A stretch of DNA of 64,000 bases, from contig OX387183.1 in assembly GCA_947561395.2 (NCBI GenBank), forward strand, positions 56,155,915-56,219,914, given 5' to 3'. The translations under genes and the position numbers were made by a program. Source of the DNA: Buxus sempervirens (Eukaryota > Streptophyta > Magnoliopsida > Buxales > Buxaceae). Positions 50,124 through 64,000 of this stretch are shown one piece after another (within the stretch, counting starts at the first letter, position 1; each line of letters starts with the position of its first letter). The notes below the pieces were generated by a model that saw nothing but the letters and a program-made list of their open reading frames with translations, was not told the origin of the DNA and did no database searches.

Positions 50124-53000
50124 TGAAGGATTTCCACCTCCCTACGTATAGGAACTAATCAGTTATAAGGCATGTCCAAAGGGGATGAAATCTTCCTACA
50201 TTGTTTTCTGTTGTGAAAGTGACATGCTACCATTTCAATGTTAGTATTTTTTTTTCCCTTCCGGTAAATATTTCATGTGGGGCCTTGAAAAAACCACCAA
50301 CCATGAGATGCTCCACATGGCAGCATCTCACACCCATAGTAGAAACCAATGCAGAATTAAATTGCAGCAGATTTCAACCTTGTCCAAAGCACATTAAAAT
50401 TTAATACAAAGAAAGTGTTTCAAGAAAGGTGGAGGAGAAGTCCTTTGAAAACATTCAGGGATCTATAGCAAACCTAGAAGCTACTCCGAAGGACATTAAT
50501 CCTCCCCTCTGGTGAAGGTGCAAACAGTACTTCAAACCATCGTACAAAAGATGAGATTTTACATTATTTTAGAAAGACAACACAGCCGACATGAGCACTT
50601 GTACAGTAGCACCACCTTAAAAGCTTGACAACCCATGGCAATAATCAAAGCATCCTCCATTGACCACCCAAATATGGTAGGATTTCAGGCCATTTGGATC
50701 TCTACCTTTTCTGCTATAGATAAGCAATATGGAATCTCAACTACACCACATGCTCTCACAACTTTCTCTTGGAAACTCACTATGTAGAGGCCCCTTATGA
50801 TAGTTGGCTCAACTGGCTACAAACCACAAGCCTAAGTAATTTCACAATCTTCATATGCATAAAACATCATCTTATCTTCAATCCACAGCTACAGACTTCA
50901 CTTGTATTGCTGTACCTGACTGACAAGTCGAAGTAATACCTTAATGCAACTTGCCTAAGTCCCACAAGGAGGTCAAATACTGCAGTGATTAAGATTCACC
51001 ACCTGCAGTGACAAGTGGGTCTTGTAAGTTAGGAGTCAACTTGTCTGATACATCAAATCCCACATGGAAGAGAAGGAAGGGCATACGATTGTGATACCAA
51101 GTGGGGACTGGCTACTGTCTGCAACATATAAACGAATTTTTCCTTAGATTGCATGTGACCTGCAATGTCAGATTGGCTAAGGACACCATGTGAGTGTTCT
51201 TGACAAATATTGCATTGTTACATCAACGCGGTACGTTGATAAAACACAGTGGGTCCTGAACAACAAGGTGGGAATAATGGCTTGAGAAGGAGACAGGTGA
51301 TAATCGAATATCATTTGCATTAGATTAAGTTTAATTAGTTCAGGGCCAACCAGTCATGATTGGGTCTGGCATGCCAGATCTCTCCCGGCTATTCTCTCTT
51401 TGCAGTTATGTTATTTCCATTCTGCATGATCATCATTTCAGTTGCCTGAGTAAATTTCTTTGGAGATATATAGATTCCCTTTGGATGGTTCTAGGGGATT
51501 TTTAATGGATCTACATGGAAAATGCTACTGGGGTTTCTTTATTTTCTTGTGGGGCGGCTTGGGAAATTTTTCAAAGAGCCATCATCATGAGAGACATGAA
51601 TAATCAAAACCCTAGCTAGCAAGCTACTCCATGTGGATTATCAAAATAATTTCAGTGCAGAATAGTAACACTGTACCAGCTGCATCTGATGGCATCTTAG
51701 GGTGGTCCTGTTGTTGAGGTAGGATGAACAGTACTTGATATAGCTTGTGACATGATGTGTTATGAAGATGTTGTTAATGTTTTTTGCCTACAAAACCCTA
51801 AGATAATCATCCCTAACCTATTATAAATGATTGGAATTAAATGATTCTCACATTCGATAATGTCCCTTCAATTTCTCTCTCTCTCTACAGGATTGAGAGA
51901 GAGAGTGAGTGGTGGGGTCTTCTCTTTGAATTTCGTCAAATGCAAGTTGGGTTTGAATCAATGTCTTTTGAAGCAAATTTTAAGCACAAGCTGCAAGTAG
52001 AAATGCATGGGACCCGCATGAAAAGGTGTTTTATCGTTTGACCGAATCGTGTAAATAAGCAACTAGCTCTCAAAGGAGTTCAAATCGTCTGCCTTGCCTA
52101 CCTTATTTGTTCTCTGATGTCGCCCTGAGATGCTACCATATGGACCATCTCACAGCTACTGTTTTTTCATATGATATAAATGTATCAAGTGGGTCCTATA
52201 TGAAAAACAGTGGCCGTGAGATGCTCCACATGTCAGCATCTCAGGGCCACCTTAGGGAGCACTTCAGGGAAACATTGCAGAGGATTTCATTCCCTCTCAA
52301 AGCGATTCGAACAAATAATGTTATGTACTTGAAGGTCTCAAACCCAATCAAAAAGTTAATGGCTCGTTTTCAATTTATTCTTAATCTAGGGAATGGGTTC
52401 CATTCGCCCAATAAGTTTGTAATATTTGAGAGTACCTGGGTTTGAATAGTTGGTAAAACAACTTTTCATTCTTTATAAATAGTAGGGGAGTATGTAACAA
52501 ATTATAATAAATAAAAAAAGAATGAGAGCGTTTTGGATATAGAATGTTAGGCAGTTAGTAAATCATACGTGTAGCGTTAACAAACGGGTATAGGAATTAA
52601 TTCGAAAAATATGGAGAGCACCTTGAGTAAGAAATGTCAGCTAGAAAAGAGGGTCATGACTTTATATAATAAGATAGATAACAATTTTGCTTTATGTTAA
52701 AGATAAACGAATTTTCCATAAATGACAAATCAATCCTTGTCATATAAAGAAATCTTTAAAATTAACAAGTTTCACTTTAAGTAGTAGCAATACTCTTGAA
52801 GTGGATAGGTTTATGGATTCTTTCATGGTTATTTAATAGGCATCAAATGGTCCCCTAAACTCTATATAAGTTCAATGTACTTGGAGTAAATTTTCCTTTT
52901 TATACTGTTGAATAGTGGAAAATATATGAGGATAAACCTACATTTGAATTTCATTATCTGCTAGTCATGTAACGAAGAAGAAAAGGATGTCCTTGTCGAA
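50124..53000. other. Intergenic region with eroded MITEs
   Basis: Two MITE-like units lie at about 50184-50390 and 52078-52297 (the second listed separately). Bases 50400-52070 hold short ORFs only, including a GA/CT-rich patch at 51870-51907. No gene or RNA is supported. Confidence 0.45.
52078..52297. mobile_element. Hairpin MITE of the AAATCGTCTGCC family
   Basis: The left end GTTCAAATCGTCTGCC faces a right end CAGAGGATTTCATTCC. The inner hairpin arms, from CCCTGAGATGCTACCATATG to CACATGTCAGCATCTCAGGG, pair strongly (52122-52248), as do CTGTTTTTTCATATGA and ATATGAAAAACAG. It is related to the element at 38182-38407 by its end sequence. Confidence 0.55.
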
Positions 53001-53172
53001 TCCAATCATGCTCCAAACGGGATGAGCATCTCACGGCGGCGGTACCGTCTGCCGCATCCTCATTTTTTTTTTTTTTTTTGGTAAAGTGCCGCATCGGTAG
53101 ACGATTTCATCCCGCTGCAAACATACACACCTTTCAATCCCAGCCAACTCGTCCGAGCTGGAATGTGACTGG

Positions 53173-53213
53173 TCAACGTGGCCTTAACGAAGATGACGTC
53201 ATCCTCCACGTCA
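53173..53213. promoter_or_regulatory. ACGT-core (bZIP-type) elements upstream of the CCT gene
   Basis: A perfect palindromic TGACGTCA lies at 53194-53201, flanked by CAACGTGG (about 53173-53181) and CCACGTCA (53206-53213). They are about 95-135 bases upstream of the CCT-gene ATG. Clusters like this are bound by bZIP factors (TGA/HY5/ABF classes). A TATA-like CATAAAGA lies at about 53231-53238. Regulation is inferred from motif content only. Confidence 0.45.
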
Positions 53214-53307
53214 CCCGCTTTCTTTCCCGACGCATAAAGAGGGGGCGGTCCCTTCGGCTTTCAGCTGTGTCAATTAAACTGAGTCGCCAAATCACACTGC
53301 GCCCGCC

Positions 53308-54449
53308 ATGTACGAGTACTCCGACCCTTTGGCTTTCACCGGCGATTCCGTCGCTTTCTTCCACCATATGCCGGAAACCACTATTACAATGCCTTCTGTA
53401 GTCCCTTCTGCGCCACCGCAACTTCTTCTTCCCGTTAATCTCGCTAGTCTCACTGCGAACGAGTTTGAATCAGCTTATGAGGCCCTCGGACCACTGAAAT
53501 CGGAGGCCGGGAATAGCAGCAGCAGCTGCGGCAGTTATGGCTCACCGGGTTCGCTACTGAGTTGTAACGCTCATGGGACGAGTTACATTCAAAGGAGCAT
53601 GAGCAGTCACTCCCTTCGGAAAGACGGGTTTCATCACAAGCCCACTTTGTCTTCTCTGGATGTAGTGGACTCGGATACCTCTTCGATGAGAAAGGTGTTT
53701 AGCACTGGCGATTTACAGGCAAGAACAAAACAAAATTCGTTTAATTTCAGTCTAAAATGGCAAATATAACTCATATTAATGGGGAAATCCGACTCCCGTT
53801 AGCTTTCTCCATCTCACTGTGCTCTAAATTGCATGTTCCATTAATACTGCTTATTTATTATTGCTATTATTTTTGGTGCAAATCAGGGGATCAACTCAGT
53901 GCAATATAGTCTTCAATCTGAGAGCTCGTCATCACATGAGAACTACTATACCATTGAAGGGTCAAACAAAGTCTGTCGTTACAGTGCAGAAGAGAGGAAA
54001 GAGAGAATTGAAAGATACAGGAGCAAGAGAAACCATAGGAACTTCACCAAGAAGATTAAGGTTTTGCTCTAATCTATATTTTTACTGTTTATTACCATCG
54101 GCAGCAGCCATTAGAGCTGGTAAATTCTTGCAGTTATATATACAGTAGACATTACTACTGATGATTATAAGAAAAAGCTTAAAGGGTACGATTGAATTCA
54201 TGTAAACTTTGTTGGGAAGATATTTCCGGCTTTAATTAATTCTCTATCTTCTTGAACCAGTATGCCTGTAGGAAGACATTGGCAGATAGCAGGCCTCGCA
54301 TCAGGGGCCGATTTGCGAGAAATGAAGACATTGTTGACAGTTCTCGAATTCTGTGGGGGCAGATGAGAGTGGACGAAGATGAAGAGGACGATGATTTTTG
54401 GATTAATTTTCTCGGCGCCTTCTCGGAAAACACAGTCCCAGAAGCTTAA
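53308..54449 (+). CDS. CCT-domain (CMF family) transcriptional regulator
   Basis: Three exons: 53308-53718, 53887-54060 and 54261-54449, 257 aa. The N-terminal half is Ser-rich with short conserved blocks (YEYSDPLAFTGD at the start, and MRKVFSTGDLQ). A complete CCT motif spans the junction of exons 2 and 3: EERKERIERYRSKRNHRNFT, then KKIKYACRKTLADSRPRIRG, then RFARN. An acidic tail follows (VDEDEEDDDFW). CCT proteins act in the nucleus, commonly with NF-Y subunits, in photoperiod, flowering and light responses; the specific role is not readable here. Intron 1 begins GCAAGA and ends AG, a GC-AG intron that keeps phase 0 (DLQ|GIN). No B-box or response-regulator domain precedes the CCT, hence CMF. 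Confidence 0.9.
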
Positions 54450-54868
54450 AATCAAAGATGTGCATGCTTGCAGTAATGAATATTTCATTACAGCAATTTT
54501 AGTTTCTTTACATGTCGTTTATTTTAGTGTTGTTGATGCGAGCGTTAAATTTCAAATTCTGTAAATATATCCAATTCTGTAATTGCATTTGGTCAAATGT
54601 TCACCATTGTTTCTAAATAAATTAATGTTTGAGAATAGAAAAGGAGCTACATATATTTGTTAATTAGAATGGAGTTATATTAAATAAGATTTTGATCAAA
54701 TTAGAAGGTGCTCGGCGTACCCAATAACTAGTTGCAATATCAGCAAACAATTACAATAAATAAATAAATAAACATTTTTAGATTTTGATAATAAAAAAAA
54801 AGAATAATTTTTTCAGCTAGGTTGGTGATGTGGTAATCAGCTGTTGAGTGTATCTTTACGGTTATTAT
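54450..54868. other. CCT-gene 3' flank
   Basis: AT-rich 3' UTR/intergenic sequence with AATAAAT-type signals at about 54614 and 54759-54775. No further gene is seen. Confidence 0.5.
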
Positions 54869-55216
54869 TAGGGGTGCAACTCGGTTCGGTTTGGTCCGGT
54901 TTGAGCTCAATCTAGGACCGAACCGAAGCTATTGAATGTTGACCCAAAACCGAACCGAACCGAAATATAAACCAATCTTATTAAACCAAAAATCGAACCA
55001 ATTATATATAAGAAATCCGAAATCCAAGCTGAACCAAACCAAATCATATATTCGGTTTTGTTCTAGATCAAAACGGAGCAAATAGTAAACTTTTTTTATT
55101 ATTAAAAAGTTTATTCTTGCCTTCAATTGAATCGGTTCATGAGTTTAAACCGTTTAAAAGGTTAACTGTTTAAAGAAGAAGACTTAGTCTAAGGCATGAG
55201 AAAGGAAGGGGGTTGC

Positions 55217-55267
55217 TTTTATAACAGTCGGCCAGGGGAAAAAACTCTTCCTTGACCGATGTGGGAC
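55217..55267 (-). promoter_or_regulatory. snRNA-type promoter (USE + TATA), minus strand
   Basis: The mirror copy: GTCCCACATCG on the minus strand at 55267-55257, then 33 bases, then TATAAAA at 55223-55217. It diverges from the plus-strand promoter; the two USEs lie 25 bases apart within the perfect palindrome. Downstream minus-strand sequence shows no known snRNA. Confidence 0.6.
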
Positions 55268-55292
55268 TCAAGGGAAGAGGCTCTTCCCTTGA

Positions 55293-55344
55293 GTCCCACA
55301 TCGGCAATGAAAGACTCCATTGGCAATGTCTCGTTACTATAAAT
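55293..55344 (+). promoter_or_regulatory. snRNA-type promoter (USE + TATA), plus strand
   Basis: GTCCCACATCG at 55293-55303 is an exact match to the plant snRNA upstream sequence element RTCCCACATCG. TATAAAT at 55338-55344 follows after 34 bases, the spacing known for Pol II-transcribed plant snRNA genes. Transcription would start near 55365-55370. The sequence there does not resemble U1, U2, U4, U5 or U6. Confidence 0.6.
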
Positions 55345-55608
55345 GAAAGCTATAGAGTCCCATCATGAAAGACTCTTTTTGACAAAGGGAATGATCACGT
55401 GTGTTGGTCAAAGCCTTTATTAAAAGAAAACTTTTCTCACAAGTTTATAATATATATGTATATAGTGTCAGGTTTTGGTTCGGTTCGGTGAAATTAGCCT
55501 TTAACCCAAAACTGAACTGAACCAAATGTTATAAAAATTGAACCGAAGTCGGTTTGGATCGGTTCAGGTTTGGTTTTAACCGGACCGAGTTGCATCCCTA
55601 GTTGTTAT

Positions 55609-56141
55609 TAGAAGGACTCTCACTATTTTAAATCTAAGATTAAGTGGCATGTATTTTCTAGCGAATGGCTACAAAAGTGGTCGTCCGTAGAGGATTTTAA
55701 TACTCTTATAGGTATTTTGCTTAACACCCAAAGCATGGGCCACGCTTGTACGGATCAGTTGGAATTTTATGTTCTAGGTCAAGGAAGTTTCAAAGCCAGT
55801 CTCCCACACATATCCCTACCAAAATTTATCTTTCTCTTTCTCTTTGGCCTCCCTAATCAGGGAAAAGATTGTTGAGCCAGCAATGCGAATCTCAAACCAC
55901 TCTCCTCCAATAACTTTTGATTAGCATAATATTTTAATCTTTTTTTTTGGTAAACGCACAATTTTTTAATCGATACAGCGTAATGACTTTTCGTTCTTTA
56001 ATCATGTGAGAATCAAATCACCACAATTATGATAAGGAAGTTCGTTTTACGCTTTCTAATTCAAAAGGCCAAGGCTTTGTACATAATCCGAGATCATTGA
56101 AAACAAATGAATAAACTTTTTGCGTGCTCAAATTCTGTAGA
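55609..56141. other. Intergenic sequence
   Basis: AT-rich with no supported gene, up to the LINE tail beginning at 56142. Confidence 0.45.
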
Positions 56142-56566
56142 TTTTTTTTTTTAGTGTAAGACTAAGAATTTATTAATGAGATAAACAGAAGAAATTATCC
56201 AGGAACTAGTCGGGATTGGGTTCGTCCAAATCAGTCATCTAATACAAAACACCTTAGAATCTCAGGAACATCATTTAACCAAAAACAAGGGAAGTAGTCT
56301 AGGGTGAAATTGACCAACTGATCGGCAACGACATTTGCTTCACGGAAGATTTTTTTAATCTTAACTGATACGAACATCCACAATGAGGTAATCAATTCTC
56401 CAGGGAGGGGTGTAATATCCAGTCAGGCACTCCACAATAATCTTTGAATCACTCTCAATAATTGGGTGTGTAACATTGAATGGTAATGCAAGCTTTAGAC
56501 CTTCTACCATAGCAGCCGCCTCTGCAGAAATAGAATTTGATATCTGTTGCTCCAAAAATGGGCCGG
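56142..56566 (-). mobile_element. LINE 3' fragment (RNase H end and poly(A) tail)
   Basis: The minus strand encodes ISAEAAAMVEGLKLALPF and THPIIESDSKIIVECLTGYY, the middle of a plant LINE RNase H domain with its acidic ESDS motif. It ends with AATAAAT about 20 bases before an A-run (T-run at 56142-56152 on the plus strand). The RNase H frame opens directly at the gypsy LTR boundary (56567), so the upstream part of this LINE was probably separated from it by the LTR-element insertion. Confidence 0.7.
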
Positions 56567-57633
56567 TGTGGACACGTGTCTGTGGTGATGATGTGTCTCT
56601 ACGCGGGCGTGCCAGTATCGTTTGATACAAAGATTTTCGAGTCGATTCCTGACCCCGGGCACCTGTTCCGAATCTGAACCGGGATCGGTTCAGTCGTACT
56701 GCAAGTCACCTGTAATAAAGTCGGTCAGGCGATGGTATGAAGACTAGGAGTTCGGTCTTCGTTTCGGGTTCTTGTAAGTGTTTGAAAGTAAAAGCAACTA
56801 ACGGCACACAAATCCCTTTATTATAAAATCGGCCAAATAGCCGAAAGCGACAACAGATAATCCTCAAAATGGAAACAAAAAGTACAAAAGAAAACCGACA
56901 GGGCTCGCAGGACCGGCCTGTCCTGGTCTTATAGCCGTAATCGGGTATAAGCGCAGGAGGAAGGGGGCGGCTACTTACAAAGTCGATTCAGGGGGTTCAC
57001 CTTGGATTGCTGCTTACCCGAAAATACACAAGTCACCTGGCGTGAACAGAGCGAGTCTCGGGACCGGCTGCTCGGGATTCCGTAAATACAAAACTGCGAG
57101 TCAGGGGCGGCCTCAACTTACTCTCCGGTGGCAGGATTCTGGTGTTAATCGGAGTAAAGAGGGGTCGAAGATGTCACTGCGACTGGAAGCAGTGAGAGAA
57201 GTCCTAGTTTATCCGTCTGTGTTAGAGGGGATAAAGGATCACGGATGATCAAAATAATATAATAACCGGTTGCGGTTGTGTGGATTGTGTCCTCGAGCTC
57301 TTCGAATTGAGGCCTTTTATAGCCGCTCCTTGATGGTTGCTCAACTTCCTACTCTCGCACGATCTTCATGGCGGTTGTTTATCGTCAGTTCTCTGTTTCA
57401 AAGTGATAACCGCCCGGCCATGACCTAATAATTCTGTTCTTGAACGGCCGATGGCACGATCTTCTGATATTTATGGTTTTGTCTTATTTGCTTGCGTAGC
57501 TTGAACCGCATTCTTCTGTATGCGTGCTGACGTGGTCGGCTCAACCCTTCAAAGTCTACGGGCCGTGGCCTAACCAAGCCACCTAGGCACCACGTGTCCT
57601 TTTCTTATTCGTCGGTTATATAGGGTGTAAACA
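56567..57633 (-). mobile_element. 3' LTR of a Ty3/gypsy-like (Tat/Ogre-type) retrotransposon
   Basis: On the minus strand the segment starts TGTTTACACCCTATATAACC and ends GTGTCCACA. The ends form a short inverted repeat (TGTTTACAC against TGTGGACAC, 7 of 9). Directly before it stands a polypurine tract, AGTAGGGGGGCAA (57634-57646), as expected upstream of a 3' LTR. Inside are a TATA box CTATAAAAGG (about 57312-57322) and AATAAA (56817-56822), in the right order for LTR promoter and polyadenylation. Length is 1067 bp. The partner LTR and gag-pol would lie beyond the right edge of the window, so the element type is inferred. Confidence 0.65.
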
Positions 57634-57782
57634 TTGCCCCCCTACTTACTTGTGACGCCGTCATCGGTCGGTGTGATGAGTAAGTATTTTTGGGTTTTTC
57701 AAAATTTGTCCGTCGTTTGATGTGAAACGATCGCACCGTTTTCCTACGATCGTAATGATGAAACCTTTCGGATTTCGCCTTC

Positions 57783-57789
57783 TATAAAG
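57783..57789 (+). promoter_or_regulatory. TATA box of the first PMD gene
   Basis: TATAAAG stands about 70 bases upstream of the ATG at 57858, between the polypurine tract and the coding sequence and on the opposite strand to the LTR promoter. It suggests the PMD gene has its own antisense transcription unit. Confidence 0.45.
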
Positions 57790-57857
57790 TACCACAGCCA
57801 AGATTTTACTTTACTCTTTCTTTTTGGCTGTTTGTTTTTTCTTCCTCTTTGTCTTCA

Positions 57858-60800
57858 ATGGCGGGCAATCTCATACACTATCCTTCTACAGTCGAAGTTT
57901 TCGGCAACTCGATATCTGTAGGCCCCTTCATTTGTGCCAGTAATGCTCCTTTGGAGGCCCCGACTGATAAAGTAAGGGGCCCTTTACTCTTTACTGACGA
58001 AGAGAATCTCCATCTACCTCTTCGCTTTCGAAATTGGCCGACTGCTTACCCTGAATGGAAAGCTTGGGTTGACCGCATGAAGGATCGTTTTGCCGTTGTT
58101 TGGCGTAAGACAGGTATTTATGACATGATTATCTTTTCGTGTCACTCTATTCCCTGCAATCGCGATCTTCTCTGCGCCATGAGTTCATTCTGGAATACTC
58201 ATACCAACACCTTCAATTTCCCCTGCGGAATGATGACTCCTACTGTCCTGGATGTCTGCTTTATTACTGGTTTCTTCGCGACTGGTCATGAGATCCGGGT
58301 CGGTATGGCGGACCTTAAGGATTATCAGCATTTACCTCCGATGGAGGTGGGTGACAAAGGGAAAGAATTAGAAAAGAAAAGAAAGCAACCCTCAACGAAG
58401 AATAACAGGGCTTTCAAGAAGGCACGATCTTCTCGGCAAAAAGGTATTGTGCTGTCCGAGCATGAACCTCCACCGTCAGAGAGCGAATCTCCACCGACTT
58501 CAATTCATTCATCTTATCGGTCCTACATCAAGGACTGTGCCAAATTCAGGCCTCCAGCTTATGCAGATGAGGTGGAACACTTCTACTTTCTCCTTTATTT
58601 TTTCTGCAACTTTGTATTCTGTTCCAAGGCCCAAGCAGTTACCAAAGAGTATTACTCATTGGTCAAGTTAATTCTGGGTGAGTATGAAGTTGCCCTTGCT
58701 CCTTACTTTTTATCGGTTTTATACCGTTCACTTCAAGAGTTTGTTCATGGCTCCCTTCAAAATCCTGGGGGGCCATTGTGGTTCCTCCAATTTTGGGCTT
58801 ATCACTATTTTCCATCCCAGTTTTATGCTCAAGTACCGATCACTCCTAACATGCCTTCTGATTTTGGTGGCCATGCCTGTTTGGCTGCCACACCAGCTGT
58901 TCTATCCTTTTCTGAATGTTTCCGTTTCTTTTTTAACCTTCATTATTTTCCTACTCCTCCTTTTGAAGTCTCCTCAAATTCTCCCGGTTTCCTTTCAATG
59001 GTGGATGACATAACTGACGAGCAGCATCTTATCTGGGCCAGTTTTCTGAAGGCTCGAAATTTAAATTATGCTGTGAAGTCAATTAACAAGAAACCGGGGT
59101 ATGAAGTATACTTGCCCAATTGTGTCGGCCGGCAATTTCAATGCGAACAGAGGATTCCCTTATTTGAAGTAGATGGTTTGTTCACAGTTAATGCCAAACC
59201 TGTTGATCGGCCGTCTGTTACTGTAGCCGAAGCTGCCGACATGGAAGATGCTTATAAAGCTGCTGCCGTTGAATTTCGACTTCCCTTTCTTCCTCGTCGT
59301 TACGACTGTCGCTGTGATTTCCGTGTTTGGTGGAAATCGTTGTGGAACAATATCTGCCGTTATTCGGCCGATTATTATCTGGAAAGGATGGGTCTGTTTG
59401 AGCCTCCGGCTTCACCTATCCAAGAAGGTATATTCTTATCTTTCTTGCTTCTGATCCGTTTGATGTTCACTCAATTTTTCTGTCATTAGGTAAAGTTCCG
59501 CCTCTAGCTTTGGAGGCTAGTCCACTTGCACTTTTGCCTGAACCTGTCCAAGAAGATATTAGTTCAGGTATACGGCCACCCGGTGAAACGCCGTTGCTTA
59601 CCTTGGAGGCTCATACTTCTCCTTCCGGGGAATTGGCCGAAGATGACGCGTTGTCACCAGAATGTCCTCTCTCGATTGTCCCGTATGAAGATGATGAGGA
59701 TCCCGATGATGTCCCACTACGACGGCGTCCTCGGAAGGTACTGAATCTTTATTGCTCATCTTCTTAGTTTGATTTTTCTTTCTGACACCTCATTCTTCTA
59801 GGCTTCGAGTTCCTCGGGTCCAACTGCTTTTTCTTCCAATGTCATGGAATCTTCTTCGGATCTGGTTGTTGATCCCATGTCCGTTTTTGATTCGGCCAAT
59901 TTCTCTGTTCCTACCGAAGCATTGGATTCTCCTGGTAGTGTCGCTGCAGCAGCCCCTTTAGCACTCCCTGAAGATCAGGAGCATTTATCCATTCGAGAGG
60001 TTTCTCCAGAAAGAAGTCCGTCTCCCGACTTACCTCCTGGATATGAGCAGAGTGCAACCTTACCGTTAGTTGGGATTGCAACGTCTACTATCTCTGTTGG
60101 GCCTTCCAGCCTTTCTGCCTTGGCCGATATTCCTTCTGATTCTCCTGTTACAGCAGCGGAAGTTGATATTAATCGTTCGAAGCAAAAGCTTATTGACTTG
60201 GGGAGTTCCAGTTCATCGCTTATTCCTTCTTTTGCTGCGGAACCACTCCCTGGTGATGGTCGATTGGATACTATATTGAACGATGTCTGTTCTACTCTCT
60301 CATCTGACGGTTCATCTGAGCCCTTATCTCCAACGAGTATCCGATCGGAAACTATTCGCCTCCTCTCTCCAGGAATAATTGGTATTTCCGAAGAGACTCT
60401 TACCCGTGTGATGGTATTGGCTGCACAACTTCGGGATCTGTCTTCTGTATCTCCTGAGGTCAAATCGGTGTTCTCTCAACTTACTTTCCTCTACCCTTAT
60501 AAAGTTGTCTTTGACCATCTTTCGGCCAAATTACATGAGATGAGTAATACGGCCGATTCTGTTGATGGCCGATATCAACTTTTGCAACAGTTGAGGAATG
60601 AGCGCGAGATTTGTCATCATCAGTTTACTGATGCGGCCCACCGTATAAATATTATTAATGATGACATTTCGGCGGTCGACCGTCAAATTGCTGAGTTTCA
60701 ATCTAGAAGATCTGATCTTGTAAATCAACGGGAGGAACTTCTTCGTACACATAACTCTATTGATGACACCTTGAAAGAAAAGACCCGTCAGTGCATCGAG

Positions 60801-60938
60801 ATCTCCCACGAGCTGAAATCGGAGATAGAATTGGCTCGAGGTTCCTCTCTGCTTCGGTCCACTTTGGTTGAAGAAAGACGGTCTGCCCAAGAGTCTTTTG
60901 ACCGTATATATTCTGCCATTTTAAATACTTCTTTGTAA
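57858..60938 (+). CDS. Plant mobile domain (PMD) protein, copy A
   Basis: Three exons: 57858-59427, 59490-59737 and 59802-60938, with short GT-AG introns of 62 and 64 bases and an uninterrupted 984-aa frame. The N-terminal PMD (aminotransferase-like, MAIN/MAIL1-related) shows LRFRNWPTAYPEWKAWVDRM, then MTPTVLDVCFITGF, then GPLWFLQFWAYHYFPSQFYA and YLPNCVGRQF. A basic insert (LEKKRKQPSTKNNRAFKKAR) splits the domain and could be a nuclear signal. The linker is acidic and Ser/Pro-rich; the last 150 residues are charged and coiled-coil-like. The start is the first ATG, MAGNLIHYP. PMD genes occur in Ty3/gypsy and MULE elements as well as in host genes; here the gene is antisense to an LTR. Its biochemical function is unknown. 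Confidence 0.8.
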
Positions 60939-61261
60939 AGCATTTAATGAATTAAACTCTTTTTTGGAATCCATTTTGCCAACTGTCCTAGCCGTCAGAA
61001 TCGGCTCCTTTTTCAATTTGATTCATCCGTATGATCTTTACCCTTAAAAACGCTTTTTTCGAGAAGATATCGAGCCGCCGTTTCGATTTCTTCGGGAAGG
61101 CGATCGTACTATCAACCTCTTTTTCGGGAAGACAGCAGTCTTATCACCGCCCTTCTCGATATTTTGAATCATTACGAGCTCTCCTTTCTGCAGACGTTTC
61201 CTTGTTTCGTTTCGTCTTCTTCTTCCTTCGAGCTTTTCTTCTCTGGTTTCTAGTATCGATC
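60939..61261. other. Spacer between the two PMD genes
   Basis: About 320 bases. The frame of copy B is open back to an ATG at 61031, but the conserved-looking start is ATGGCGGACG at 61262, and the upstream translation (Phe/Arg/Ser-rich) looks like leader. No TATA box is as clear as the one for copy A. Confidence 0.5.
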
Positions 61262-64000
61262 ATGGCGGACGACAACCCTAACGACTTAAATCTGTTCCTT
61301 GATGGTGAGGATGGTCCTGTTCTTGGTCCATGCACTGATGACGAGACGGAAAAGGCTCCAAAGGTCCTTCATTCTTCCTACCACTTGATCAGCGCCTCTG
61401 ATCCTGTGAGATGGGGTAATCTGATTACTCTTCCTCGCTCCTGGCCTAAGTGTTCCCCTGAGTGGAACAAATGGGTTGAGCGTTTACGGTCTTATTATAT
61501 GGAGACCTGGGTTAGGCTAGGTTTGGCGGAGATGATCTTCTATTCCACCTTCTACATTCCCTTCAATCCTATTTTGCTTGGAGTGGCCTCATTTTTCTGG
61601 TGTCGGGGTTCTAACACCTTCTCCTTTTACCATGGGCCTATGACCCCGACCCTGTTGGATGTTTGCTGCATCACAGGTCTTTCAGTCCTTGGGGAAGAAG
61701 TAGATTCTACCCTGTCTGTTTTCTCATCTTCTGTTTTTAACACCGCTCATGCTTCTTCTGCTTTCGGCACCTTTGTTCGTGCTGAGCGAGTTCCAAATGA
61801 CGATAATCCTCCTTCCCTTCAAGAGCATTGCTCTTTCTTGCTGTTTTTTCTTTGCCATTTTTTCTGCTGTGGCCCATCTGCTCAGATGGTAAAGGAGTTT
61901 GCCGGTATTGCGGTAGCCCTGGCCCATGGTCGCCGTTTGGCTCTAGCCCCTTTCTTTCTCAGCCAGGTCTACCGTGGTTTACACAGTCTGTCTTTCGGCC
62001 GATTAGGGGTTGCCAGTGGCCCTCTTTGGTTTTTACAATTCTGGTTTTATGAATACTTTCCCGGCTTTTTCTGTACAGCCGTAGACAATCCTTTTCCTAA
62101 TTATTACTATGCCGGCCGTCGCTGGCTTACCGCAACACCTATTCAATTATCTTTCACGGCTGTTCTTGATTTCTTCCTGGTAGGTCTACAGGAAAATAAT
62201 CCTCCTTTATTCCATCACTTTTCTCTAGACCAATTTCATGGGTCTCCCCTTTATGCTGCCATCAATTCTTCTCCAGAAGCTCGCCGACGTGCGACGGCCA
62301 GTTTTCTTATTGCCCGTGAGCTTCCTTTTGGCTTGCACAACCGAGATGCTCCTGCCACTTCTAGAAGAGAAGGGGTGGAAATATATCTGCCGCATTTCGT
62401 CAGTCGGCAACTTGGTTATGGCAAAGGCATTCCTCTGGTGGTGTTTTCATCTACCAATGGTGGCTCTCGGTCTGTTTTGAGCCCTAGTTACCTGTCATTA
62501 GCAACTTCTCGGTTCCGCGATCTTTCTGCTCGCTTCCGCAATTATCCTCTTCCCCGGGAATCCTCAGTTGAACCTTCCTTTCGTCGATGGTGGTCTCAGC
62601 TTTACTCTGACTTTGTCCGGCTTGATGCAGAGTCGTATACTGCGCTATTTCGACCGAATGCGGTCGATATAGCGAGTATAGGCAAACTCCGCGGGTATTA
62701 TGAGGCCCGTTACCCAGGTAACTTTCGTTTATGTTTTTGTAAATTGATCTTCTCTATTCGGTCGCGTTTGACTTTCTTTTTCTTTATTAGATGATCCTCG
62801 ATCCTCCAATGTGAAGAGTAAGAAAAAGAAATCCAAGACGTCGGTCACCTTTAACTGGAGGCGACCTTCCAAGGTTTCTGCCAGTCGGAGCAACCCTTCT
62901 TCCAAACAGTCGCCTTTGAAAAAGCGGAAGATTGGTGAGGTATCGGACGGTCGTGCTTACGTTACTCGCTCCAGTTTGCGACTCCGAGTTCGGCGTCCAG
63001 GTGAGCGTGTCGTCTTGTCTGATGATTCTTCGGACGAGGAAGAAGATATCGATTTATTTCGTCCTCAGCATGGGCCTCCCGTTCATTGTGGGAGTAGTGG
63101 TAGATCAACTCCCATGCCGACTCCTCCTCGTGCATTTCATTATGCTAGTCCCCCAACCTCAACTCGATTTGTCACTCCTTCGACCGATCCGTTGCCTAGT
63201 GCACCTAGGCCGGCTCCTTTCTTCCCTCGTCCCGTGGTTGATGAAGCTGGTCCATCCACTGTTCCTGGTGCTGCTTCCTCTGGTTCCTCTTCTGGTGAAT
63301 TACCTTCTGAGCCAAAAATTCCGGTGGCCAAGGAAGAAAATTATAGACCCCTCCCTGGTACTTGCTTCGGATTTGTCAGGTTTTGCTTCATGGAAGTAGA
63401 CCGTTGTCTTTCATCTCCCGAATTTCATGACCTTCTTCCGGCATTTCTTCCGGATTTTGACAGTTGGAACGAACTCCGCTCTTTTGTTCTTCGTCAGCCT
63501 GAAGAACTTTCTGACGAAGATTTGTCAGAAGTTCGATTGTTGATATGCAGAGCCATAGTGATGAATTCTCGCGGGGATAGTTCAACCGGAGATCGGCTAA
63601 TGTCCATGCTTGGTTTTTACAGTGCCGTGCCGCAGCTAAGGGAAGCCATGGACTTTCTCCGTTCTGTCAACGTGAGATGTTCCGATTTCCGTCAAGAAAT
63701 TCGTGCTGTATATGGTCATAATCGCCATTTGGAGACTTTGAGGTGGTCTCTTCATAAAAATTCTCTTGGCCAGGGCTCTATTGCTGGTGATCCATCAGAT
63801 ACTGCTTCGGACGATTTATCTCGGCTACAATCTGAGGAACATCATCTTAAAGAATCTATCCAGACTCAGATGCTGCTGATCGAATCGAGCCGTCACCGTT
63901 TGGAGGAGCATATGAGGGATGAAAGGGAGGTGGAGGTTCGTCGAGCTGAGATGCAGTTATTATTGGAGCGGGCGAAGTACGATCATGCCCGATTTAAGAC
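61262..64000 (+). CDS. Plant mobile domain (PMD) protein, copy B, 3'-partial
   Basis: Exon 1 61262-62717, a 73-base GT-AG intron in phase 1, and exon 2 from 62791, which stays open to the window end. The PMD part shows LPRSWPKCSPEWNKWVERLR, then MTPTLLDVCCITGLSVLGEE, then GPLWFLQFWFYEYFPGFFC and YLPHFVSRQLGYGKGIPL, clearly paralogous to copy A but strongly diverged. Exon 2 starts with a very basic, nuclear-signal-like stretch (KSKKKKSKTS, KKRKIGE), then an acidic patch (DDSSDEEEDIDLF), a Pro/Ser-rich linker and a charged, probably coiled-coil region up to base 64000. Copy A has an intron of the same phase just after its PMD, so the two share architecture. The C-terminus is outside the window. 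Confidence 0.75.

What the first reader, a model, noticed from the sequence alone, without database searches (positions are those of the whole stretch)
56567..64000. Two tandem spliced PMD genes antisense to a gypsy-like LTR
Seen: the minus strand has an LTR (56567-57633) with TG...CA-type ends, TATA box, AATAAA and an adjacent polypurine tract. Immediately beyond, on the opposite strand, lie two consecutive multi-exon PMD genes, the first with its own TATA box. Known: Tat/Ogre-lineage Ty3/gypsy elements can carry extra antisense ORFs between pol and the 3' LTR, and PMD domains occur in Ty3/gypsy elements. Inference: this is such an element with a duplicated antisense PMD cassette. I know of single antisense ORFs as described; a tandem pair of diverged PMD genes with nuclear-signal and coiled-coil tails looks unusual and could be a two-component accessory module.
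Basis: partly seen in the sequence, partly recalled or inferred. Interest (0 to 1): 0.8.

Follow-up and report, generated by a model that had tools for sequence, protein, structure and literature searches.

The report
Retrotransposon end with paired antisense genes
The end of what looks like a young plant jumping element carries two distantly related genes of the plant mobile domain family, apparently with introns and read against the element's own direction; single genes of this kind are known in such elements, and the pair looks like an uncommon variant whose job is not known.

Summary
Minus strand 56567-57633 is a 1,067-bp LTR (TG...CA, TATAAAAGG, AATAAA). It interrupts a LINE RNase H remnant on its left and abuts a polypurine tract on its right, so it is a 3' LTR and the interior lies to the right. 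The visible 6.4 kb of interior hold two genes on the opposite strand: gene A (57858-60938, three predicted exons, 984 aa) and gene B (61262->64000, two so far). Each has a PMD domain (PF10536, E 4e-31 and 3e-29), a low-complexity linker and a helical tail. They are 29% identical over the PMD, no closer to each other than to a Rosa chinensis protein, so no recent duplication. Best reading: the 3' part of a young Tat/Ogre-type Ty3/gypsy element with two antisense accessory genes; antisense placement would let introns survive retrotransposition. Gag-pol, PBS, 5' LTR, TSD and other copies could not be checked: 13 of 13 identical genome requests did not complete. PMD genes in Ogre elements and antisense ORFs in Retand elements are in print; ten searches of a limited library showed no tandem spliced antisense pair in what I read.

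The parts
56364..56564 (-). LINE-type RNase H remnant (RVT_3) interrupted by the LTR: target site, not part of the element
   Evidence: PF13456 E 1.6e-05, 25.3 bits, cut-off 21.6, profile positions 39-79 of 123; a piece further left in another frame matches positions 100-122 below the cut-off (E 0.031, 14.6 bits)
56562..56566 (.). GCCGG, the 5 bp beside the LTR: expected target-site duplication if the TSD is 5 bp
   Evidence: read directly; the other copy would lie outside the window
56567..57633 (-). 3' LTR, 1067 bp, TG...CA
   Evidence: termini, TATA, AATAAA, PPT on one side and no TGG within 5 nt on the other
57315..57321 (-). likely LTR TATA box (TATAAAA)
56817..56822 (-). LTR AATAAA polyadenylation signal
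57634..57651 (-). polypurine tract AAGTAAGTAGGGGGGCAA
57783..57788 (+). TATA box of gene A
57858..59427 (+). gene A exon 1 (PMD at about 58113-59186)
   Evidence: PF10536 4.3e-31; frame
59490..59737 (+). gene A exon 2 (predicted)
   Evidence: GT-AG introns 59428-59489 and 59738-59801
59802..60938 (+). gene A exon 3 (predicted), with coiled-coil-like tail (about 60609-60923) and stop
61262..62717 (+). gene B exon 1 (PMD at about 61520-62593)
   Evidence: PF10536 3.1e-29
62791..64000 (+). gene B exon 2 (predicted), open at the window end; NLS-like KKKK and KKRK near its start
   Evidence: GT-AG intron 62718-62790, phase 1

Best explanation
This is the 3' part of a recently inserted plant Ty3/gypsy LTR retrotransposon, most likely of the Tat clade near Ogre, read on the minus strand, with two antisense accessory genes between pol and the 3' LTR. 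Each gene makes a PMD protein with basic NLS-like clusters, a low-complexity linker and a helical, coiled-coil-like tail. Gene A has its own promoter next to the polypurine tract; gene B may have a TATA-less promoter. Shown: LTR, polypurine tract, orientation, two intact PMD reading frames, GT-AG intron signals on the antisense strand. Inferred: the genomic RNA made from the 5' LTR carries these introns as their complement (CT...AC), so they are not spliced out and pass through reverse transcription, while the antisense mRNAs are spliced and translated. Inferred further: the proteins act in the nucleus on chromatin or transcription of the element, for example against host silencing of the MAIN/MAIL1 kind.
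For: LTR and PPT anatomy; insertion into a LINE remnant. LTR and interior share a make-up unlike most of the host part: CGGCC/GGCCG 7 in 1,067 bp and 22 in 6,367 bp against 16 in 56,566 bp; GC 0.486 and 0.461 against 0.369, CpG o/e 1.08 and 0.87 against 0.42 in 1-50000; LTR CpG count 68, highest of 278 host windows of that size 55. PMD in both genes. Print: PMD in 57% of Ogre elements (PMC6317226); [quoted passage not shown]
Against: No gag-pol, PBS, second LTR or second copy seen; the visible interior is all accessory. CpG o/e in host windows reaches 1.10 (278 windows) and the best CpG changepoint falls at 52973, in the host part, not at the LTR edge. B exon 1 CpG o/e (0.72) is close to the highest of four host ORFs (0.68). 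No RNA evidence. AlphaFold models are poor (mean pLDDT 41.8 and 39.9) and say nothing about PMD function.
Confidence: 0.78

Rival explanations
1. Host PMD genes (PMD-B or PMD-C type) that happen to lie beside a truncated or solo LTR; the LTR element merely landed there.
For: Genic PMD genes are found throughout angiosperms (PMC5418596 passage); intact frames and a TATA match of gene A's own.
Against: A polypurine tract lies exactly at the LTR edge on the gene side, which a solo LTR lacks; only 224 bp separate the LTR from gene A's ATG; LTR and genes share a make-up, with CpG o/e 0.72-0.94 in four exons against 0.21-0.68 in four host ORFs.
Confidence: 0.1
2. A non-autonomous derivative: LTRs and PMD genes but no functional gag-pol, moved by a relative.
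For: Some Retand elements lack typical coding domains (PMC11963269); nothing of gag-pol is in the visible 6.4 kb.
Against: 6,367 bp is still within the 2,933-6,566 bp POL-3'LTR range printed for Retand, though near its upper end and with gene B unfinished; pol may begin just beyond the window.
Confidence: 0.15
3. A second mobile element with PMD genes (for example a PMD-bearing MULE) nested in the LTR element's 3' region.
For: MULE-encoded PMD is in print (PMC5418596).
Against: No MULE transposase match in A, B or the two minus-strand ORFs scanned, and no inverted-repeat arm over 22 nt among the 15 pairs found in 56000-64000; the right end is missing.
Confidence: 0.04

Closest known systems
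Ogre-type (Tat clade) Ty3/gypsy elements with PMD eORFs
   Same: PMD (PF10536) extra ORFs and large accessory regions; PMD printed for 57% of Ogre elements (PMC6317226, passages seen)
   Different: Two PMD genes in tandem, antisense, with intron signals; no such pair in the passages seen; lineage here not shown because RT is outside the window
Retand elements (Grande, RIRE2, Retand)
   Same: Antisense ORFs between pol and 3' LTR; printed LTR range 315-1,194 bp covers 1,067 bp (PMC11963269, parts 1-2 of 5 and passages seen)
   Different: 97% of Retand clusters encode TRP28; neither gene here matches it as far as visible; 'PMD' and 'mobile domain' occur 0 times in that text
MAIN/MAIL1 (Arabidopsis genic PMD-C proteins)
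   Same: Same domain; two PMD proteins in one pathway, perhaps as heterodimers (PMC5418596, passages seen)
   Different: Host genes that silence TEs, standalone PMD (PMC7156037, passages seen); this pair seems to be carried by a TE and has long linkers and tails; no sequence comparison with MAIN or MAIL1 was made
Rosa chinensis LOC112178068 (P0001)
   Same: PMD, linker and tail with weak coiled-coil matches; 29% and 32% identical to A and B over the PMD
   Different: Its genomic setting was not seen; tails show no detectable similarity to A or B

Membership tests
LTR retrotransposon | LTR with TG...CA ends, promoter and poly(A) signals | tested here: met
   one LTR only
LTR retrotransposon | Polypurine tract at the 5' edge of the 3' LTR | tested here: met
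LTR retrotransposon | Second LTR, PBS, target-site duplication | not testable with these tools
   outside the window; the genome search unanswered in 13 of 13 tries
Ty3/gypsy, Tat clade, Ogre | RT-RH-aRH-INT order and tree position | not testable with these tools
   pol not in window
Ty3/gypsy, Tat clade, Ogre | PMD-type extra ORF (printed for 57% of Ogre elements, so typical, not strictly defining) | tested here: met
   PF10536 in both genes
Ty3/gypsy, Tat clade (Retand style) | Antisense ORF between pol and 3' LTR | tested here: inconclusive
   antisense to the LTR and next to it: met; 'after pol' not seen
Retand | TRP28 (Transposase_28) antisense protein, printed for 97% of clusters | tested here: not met
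   no such Pfam match in A, B or two minus-strand ORFs; B is incomplete
Gypsy-encoded PMD-A1/PMD-A2 clades | Tree position among PMD reference sequences | not tested
   reference sequences are in a supplement not available here; a six-sequence tree only parts A, B, Rosa and Rubroshorea from Castanea and Colocasia (99/98), their order open, two long branches unsure
MULE with PMD | Mutator transposase and TIRs | tested here: inconclusive
   none seen, right end missing

The most novel reading that the evidence does not exclude
The element encodes a two-part PMD complex in antisense: A and B form a heterodimer that mimics or poisons the host MAIN/MAIL1 (PMD-C) silencing machinery, and the two Gypsy-only PMD clades of angiosperms (A1, A2) are the two partners of this module, kept together in one element since early in angiosperm evolution.
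Probability: 0.1. Interest if true: 0.78.

Novelty: new variant of a known kind. Interest (0 to 1): 0.42.

Why it matters
Some PMD proteins of plants silence transposons, and the domain is shared with Gypsy elements, but what the elements use it for is unknown. An element that keeps two diverged PMD genes intact and antisense suggests that both are needed and gives a natural pair for testing PMD-PMD binding, interference with MAIN/MAIL1 and antisense promoter use. It also illustrates a simple rule: genes placed antisense can keep their introns through reverse transcription.

Tried and rejected
Recent tandem duplication: rejected, since A-B identity (29%) is no higher than A-Rosa (29%) or B-Rosa (32%). 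Homology of the tails: A-B score 38 against shuffled mean 36.8 (116 of 300 shuffles as high), so none detectable; of six pairs only A-Rubroshorea was rare (2 of 300), likely a composition effect. The A-B linkers score somewhat above shuffles (16 of 500 as high), which I do not read as homology. CpG changepoint as boundary evidence: it fell at 52973 in the host part, so CpG is only weak support. Structure models: mean pLDDT 41.8 and 39.9, so no fold search was run. Solved structures: best E 0.54, no relative. Relatives: viral contigs none confirmed (131 and 33 pattern matches); protein search 3 hits among 7,993 candidates scored for B, none among 4,294 for A residues 40-540 (although A does align with the Rosa protein pairwise, so that search is not sensitive), 4 among 7,993 for a five-sequence profile, three of which were in the profile. 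Rfam on 54000-64000: none; tRNA on the window: none. Tandem arrays in the interior: two weak rows of 2-3 copies.

Full report
What is there. The window is, by its genes, from a plant: the host part holds a DYW-type PPR protein, a RING protein and a homeodomain protein. At 56567-57633 on the minus strand lies a 1,067-bp LTR with TG...CA ends, a good TATA box (TATAAAAGG, from 57321) and AATAAA (from 56822) in the right order. No second copy is in the window.

Which side is the inside. Left of the LTR, the minus strand reads CCGGCCCATTTTTGG, with no TGG within five bases, the place where a primer-binding site would start (criterion as in PMC6317226). Instead it runs into a decayed RNase H of a LINE (RVT_3, E 1.6e-05, profile positions 39-79 of 123). 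A piece further left in another frame matches positions 100-122, but below the cut-off (E 0.031). To the right a purine tract with six G lies against the LTR, the only such tract in LTR plus interior. So this is a 3' LTR, the left is the target site, and the interior begins at 57634. A solo LTR would have no such tract.

Same element or neighbours. The LTR and the 6,367 bp to its right share a make-up that most of the host part lacks: CGGCC/GGCCG 7 in 1,067 bp and 22 in 6,367 bp against 16 in 56,566 bp; GC 0.486 and 0.461 against 0.369 in 1-50000, CpG o/e 1.08 and 0.87 against 0.42. The LTR has 68 CpG; the richest of 278 host windows of that size has 55. Undepleted CpG and intact frames suggest a young insertion. 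Against it: host windows reach CpG o/e 1.10, and the strongest CpG changepoint is at 52973.

The genes. Gene A is 57858-59427, 59490-59737, 59802-60938; gene B is 61262-62717, 62791 to beyond 64000. The three predicted introns are GT-AG, 62-73 nt and 50-55% T. If kept, they give a first stop at 59487, 59765 and 62792. Intron 1 of A and the intron of B are both phase 1 and both lie shortly after the PMD, though not in the same alignment column, which fits a shared ancestral intron (inference). Pfam finds PMD in both. The rest of each protein is a linker rich in P, S, T, G, D and E, with basic clusters in B's linker, and a proline-poor tail. Heptad-like periodicity is strong in A (0 of 300 shuffles as high for 876-945) and weaker in B (p 0.037, 0.020 and 0.18 in its last three windows), whose tail is cut.

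How old the pair is. A and B align at 29% (E 2e-45). A is 29% and B 32% identical to a Rosa chinensis PMD protein. In a tree of six sequences A, B, Rosa and Rubroshorea part from Castanea and Colocasia (99/98), with their own order open; Rubroshorea and Colocasia are long, unsure branches. The pair is thus old or of separate origins, and the frames are intact as far as visible.

How it may work. On the genomic RNA, made from the LTR promoter on the minus strand, the three introns read CT...AC, so ordinary splicing has nothing to cut there, and the genes keep their introns through reverse transcription. The plus-strand mRNA can be spliced. This follows from the anatomy and general knowledge; no RNA was seen. 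Grande, a Retand element, has a precedent for an antisense gene with its own promoter and a nuclear protein (PMC7264820, passages). For function there is only analogy: host PMD proteins MAIN and MAIL1 silence transposons, perhaps as heterodimers, and the authors of PMC5418596 speculate that PMD captured by MULEs serves anti-silencing. I take nuclear regulation of the element as most likely (about 0.5) and anti-silencing as a fair guess within that (about 0.25); both numbers are judgement.

What is known. PMD in Gypsy elements and antisense ORFs in Tat elements are both in print. I saw passages of PMC6317226, PMC9289625, PMC7264820, PMC7156037, PMC5418596 and PMC11152179, and parts 1-2 of 5 plus passages of PMC11963269; other papers listed were seen only as listings. 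The survey by Steinbauerova and others (2011) is not held; I know it only as recalled and as cited by others, and it may describe such arrangements. In ten searches I saw no title, abstract start or passage that describes two spliced antisense PMD genes in one element. The library is limited and supplements were not open, so absence from print is not shown.

Limits. Gag-pol, PBS, 5' LTR, TSD and copy number could not be looked at: the search of the window's own genome was unanswered in 13 identical tries, and the tool's holdings are described as prokaryote genomes. Filing under Tat/Ogre therefore rests on PMD, antisense placement and LTR anatomy, not on reverse transcriptase.

Noticed in passing
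62636-62681: A near-perfect hairpin lies inside gene B exon 1: the 66-nt stretch 62625-62690 folds at -31.6 kcal/mol, z -5.3, 0 of 200 shuffles as stable. It sits just after the PMD and before the predicted intron.
   Followed up: partly
56100-56566: Decayed LINE RNase H, apparently frameshifted, cut by the LTR; it gives a testable prediction for the right flank of the element.
   Followed up: partly
52400-53770: CpG-rich stretch (windows with CpG o/e 1.0-1.1) around an ORF at 53308-53769 without a Pfam match, unlike most of the host part.
   Followed up: no
58365-58562 (gene A residues about 170-235): Gene A carries an insert in the middle of its PMD with two basic, NLS-like clusters that gene B lacks there.
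   Followed up: no
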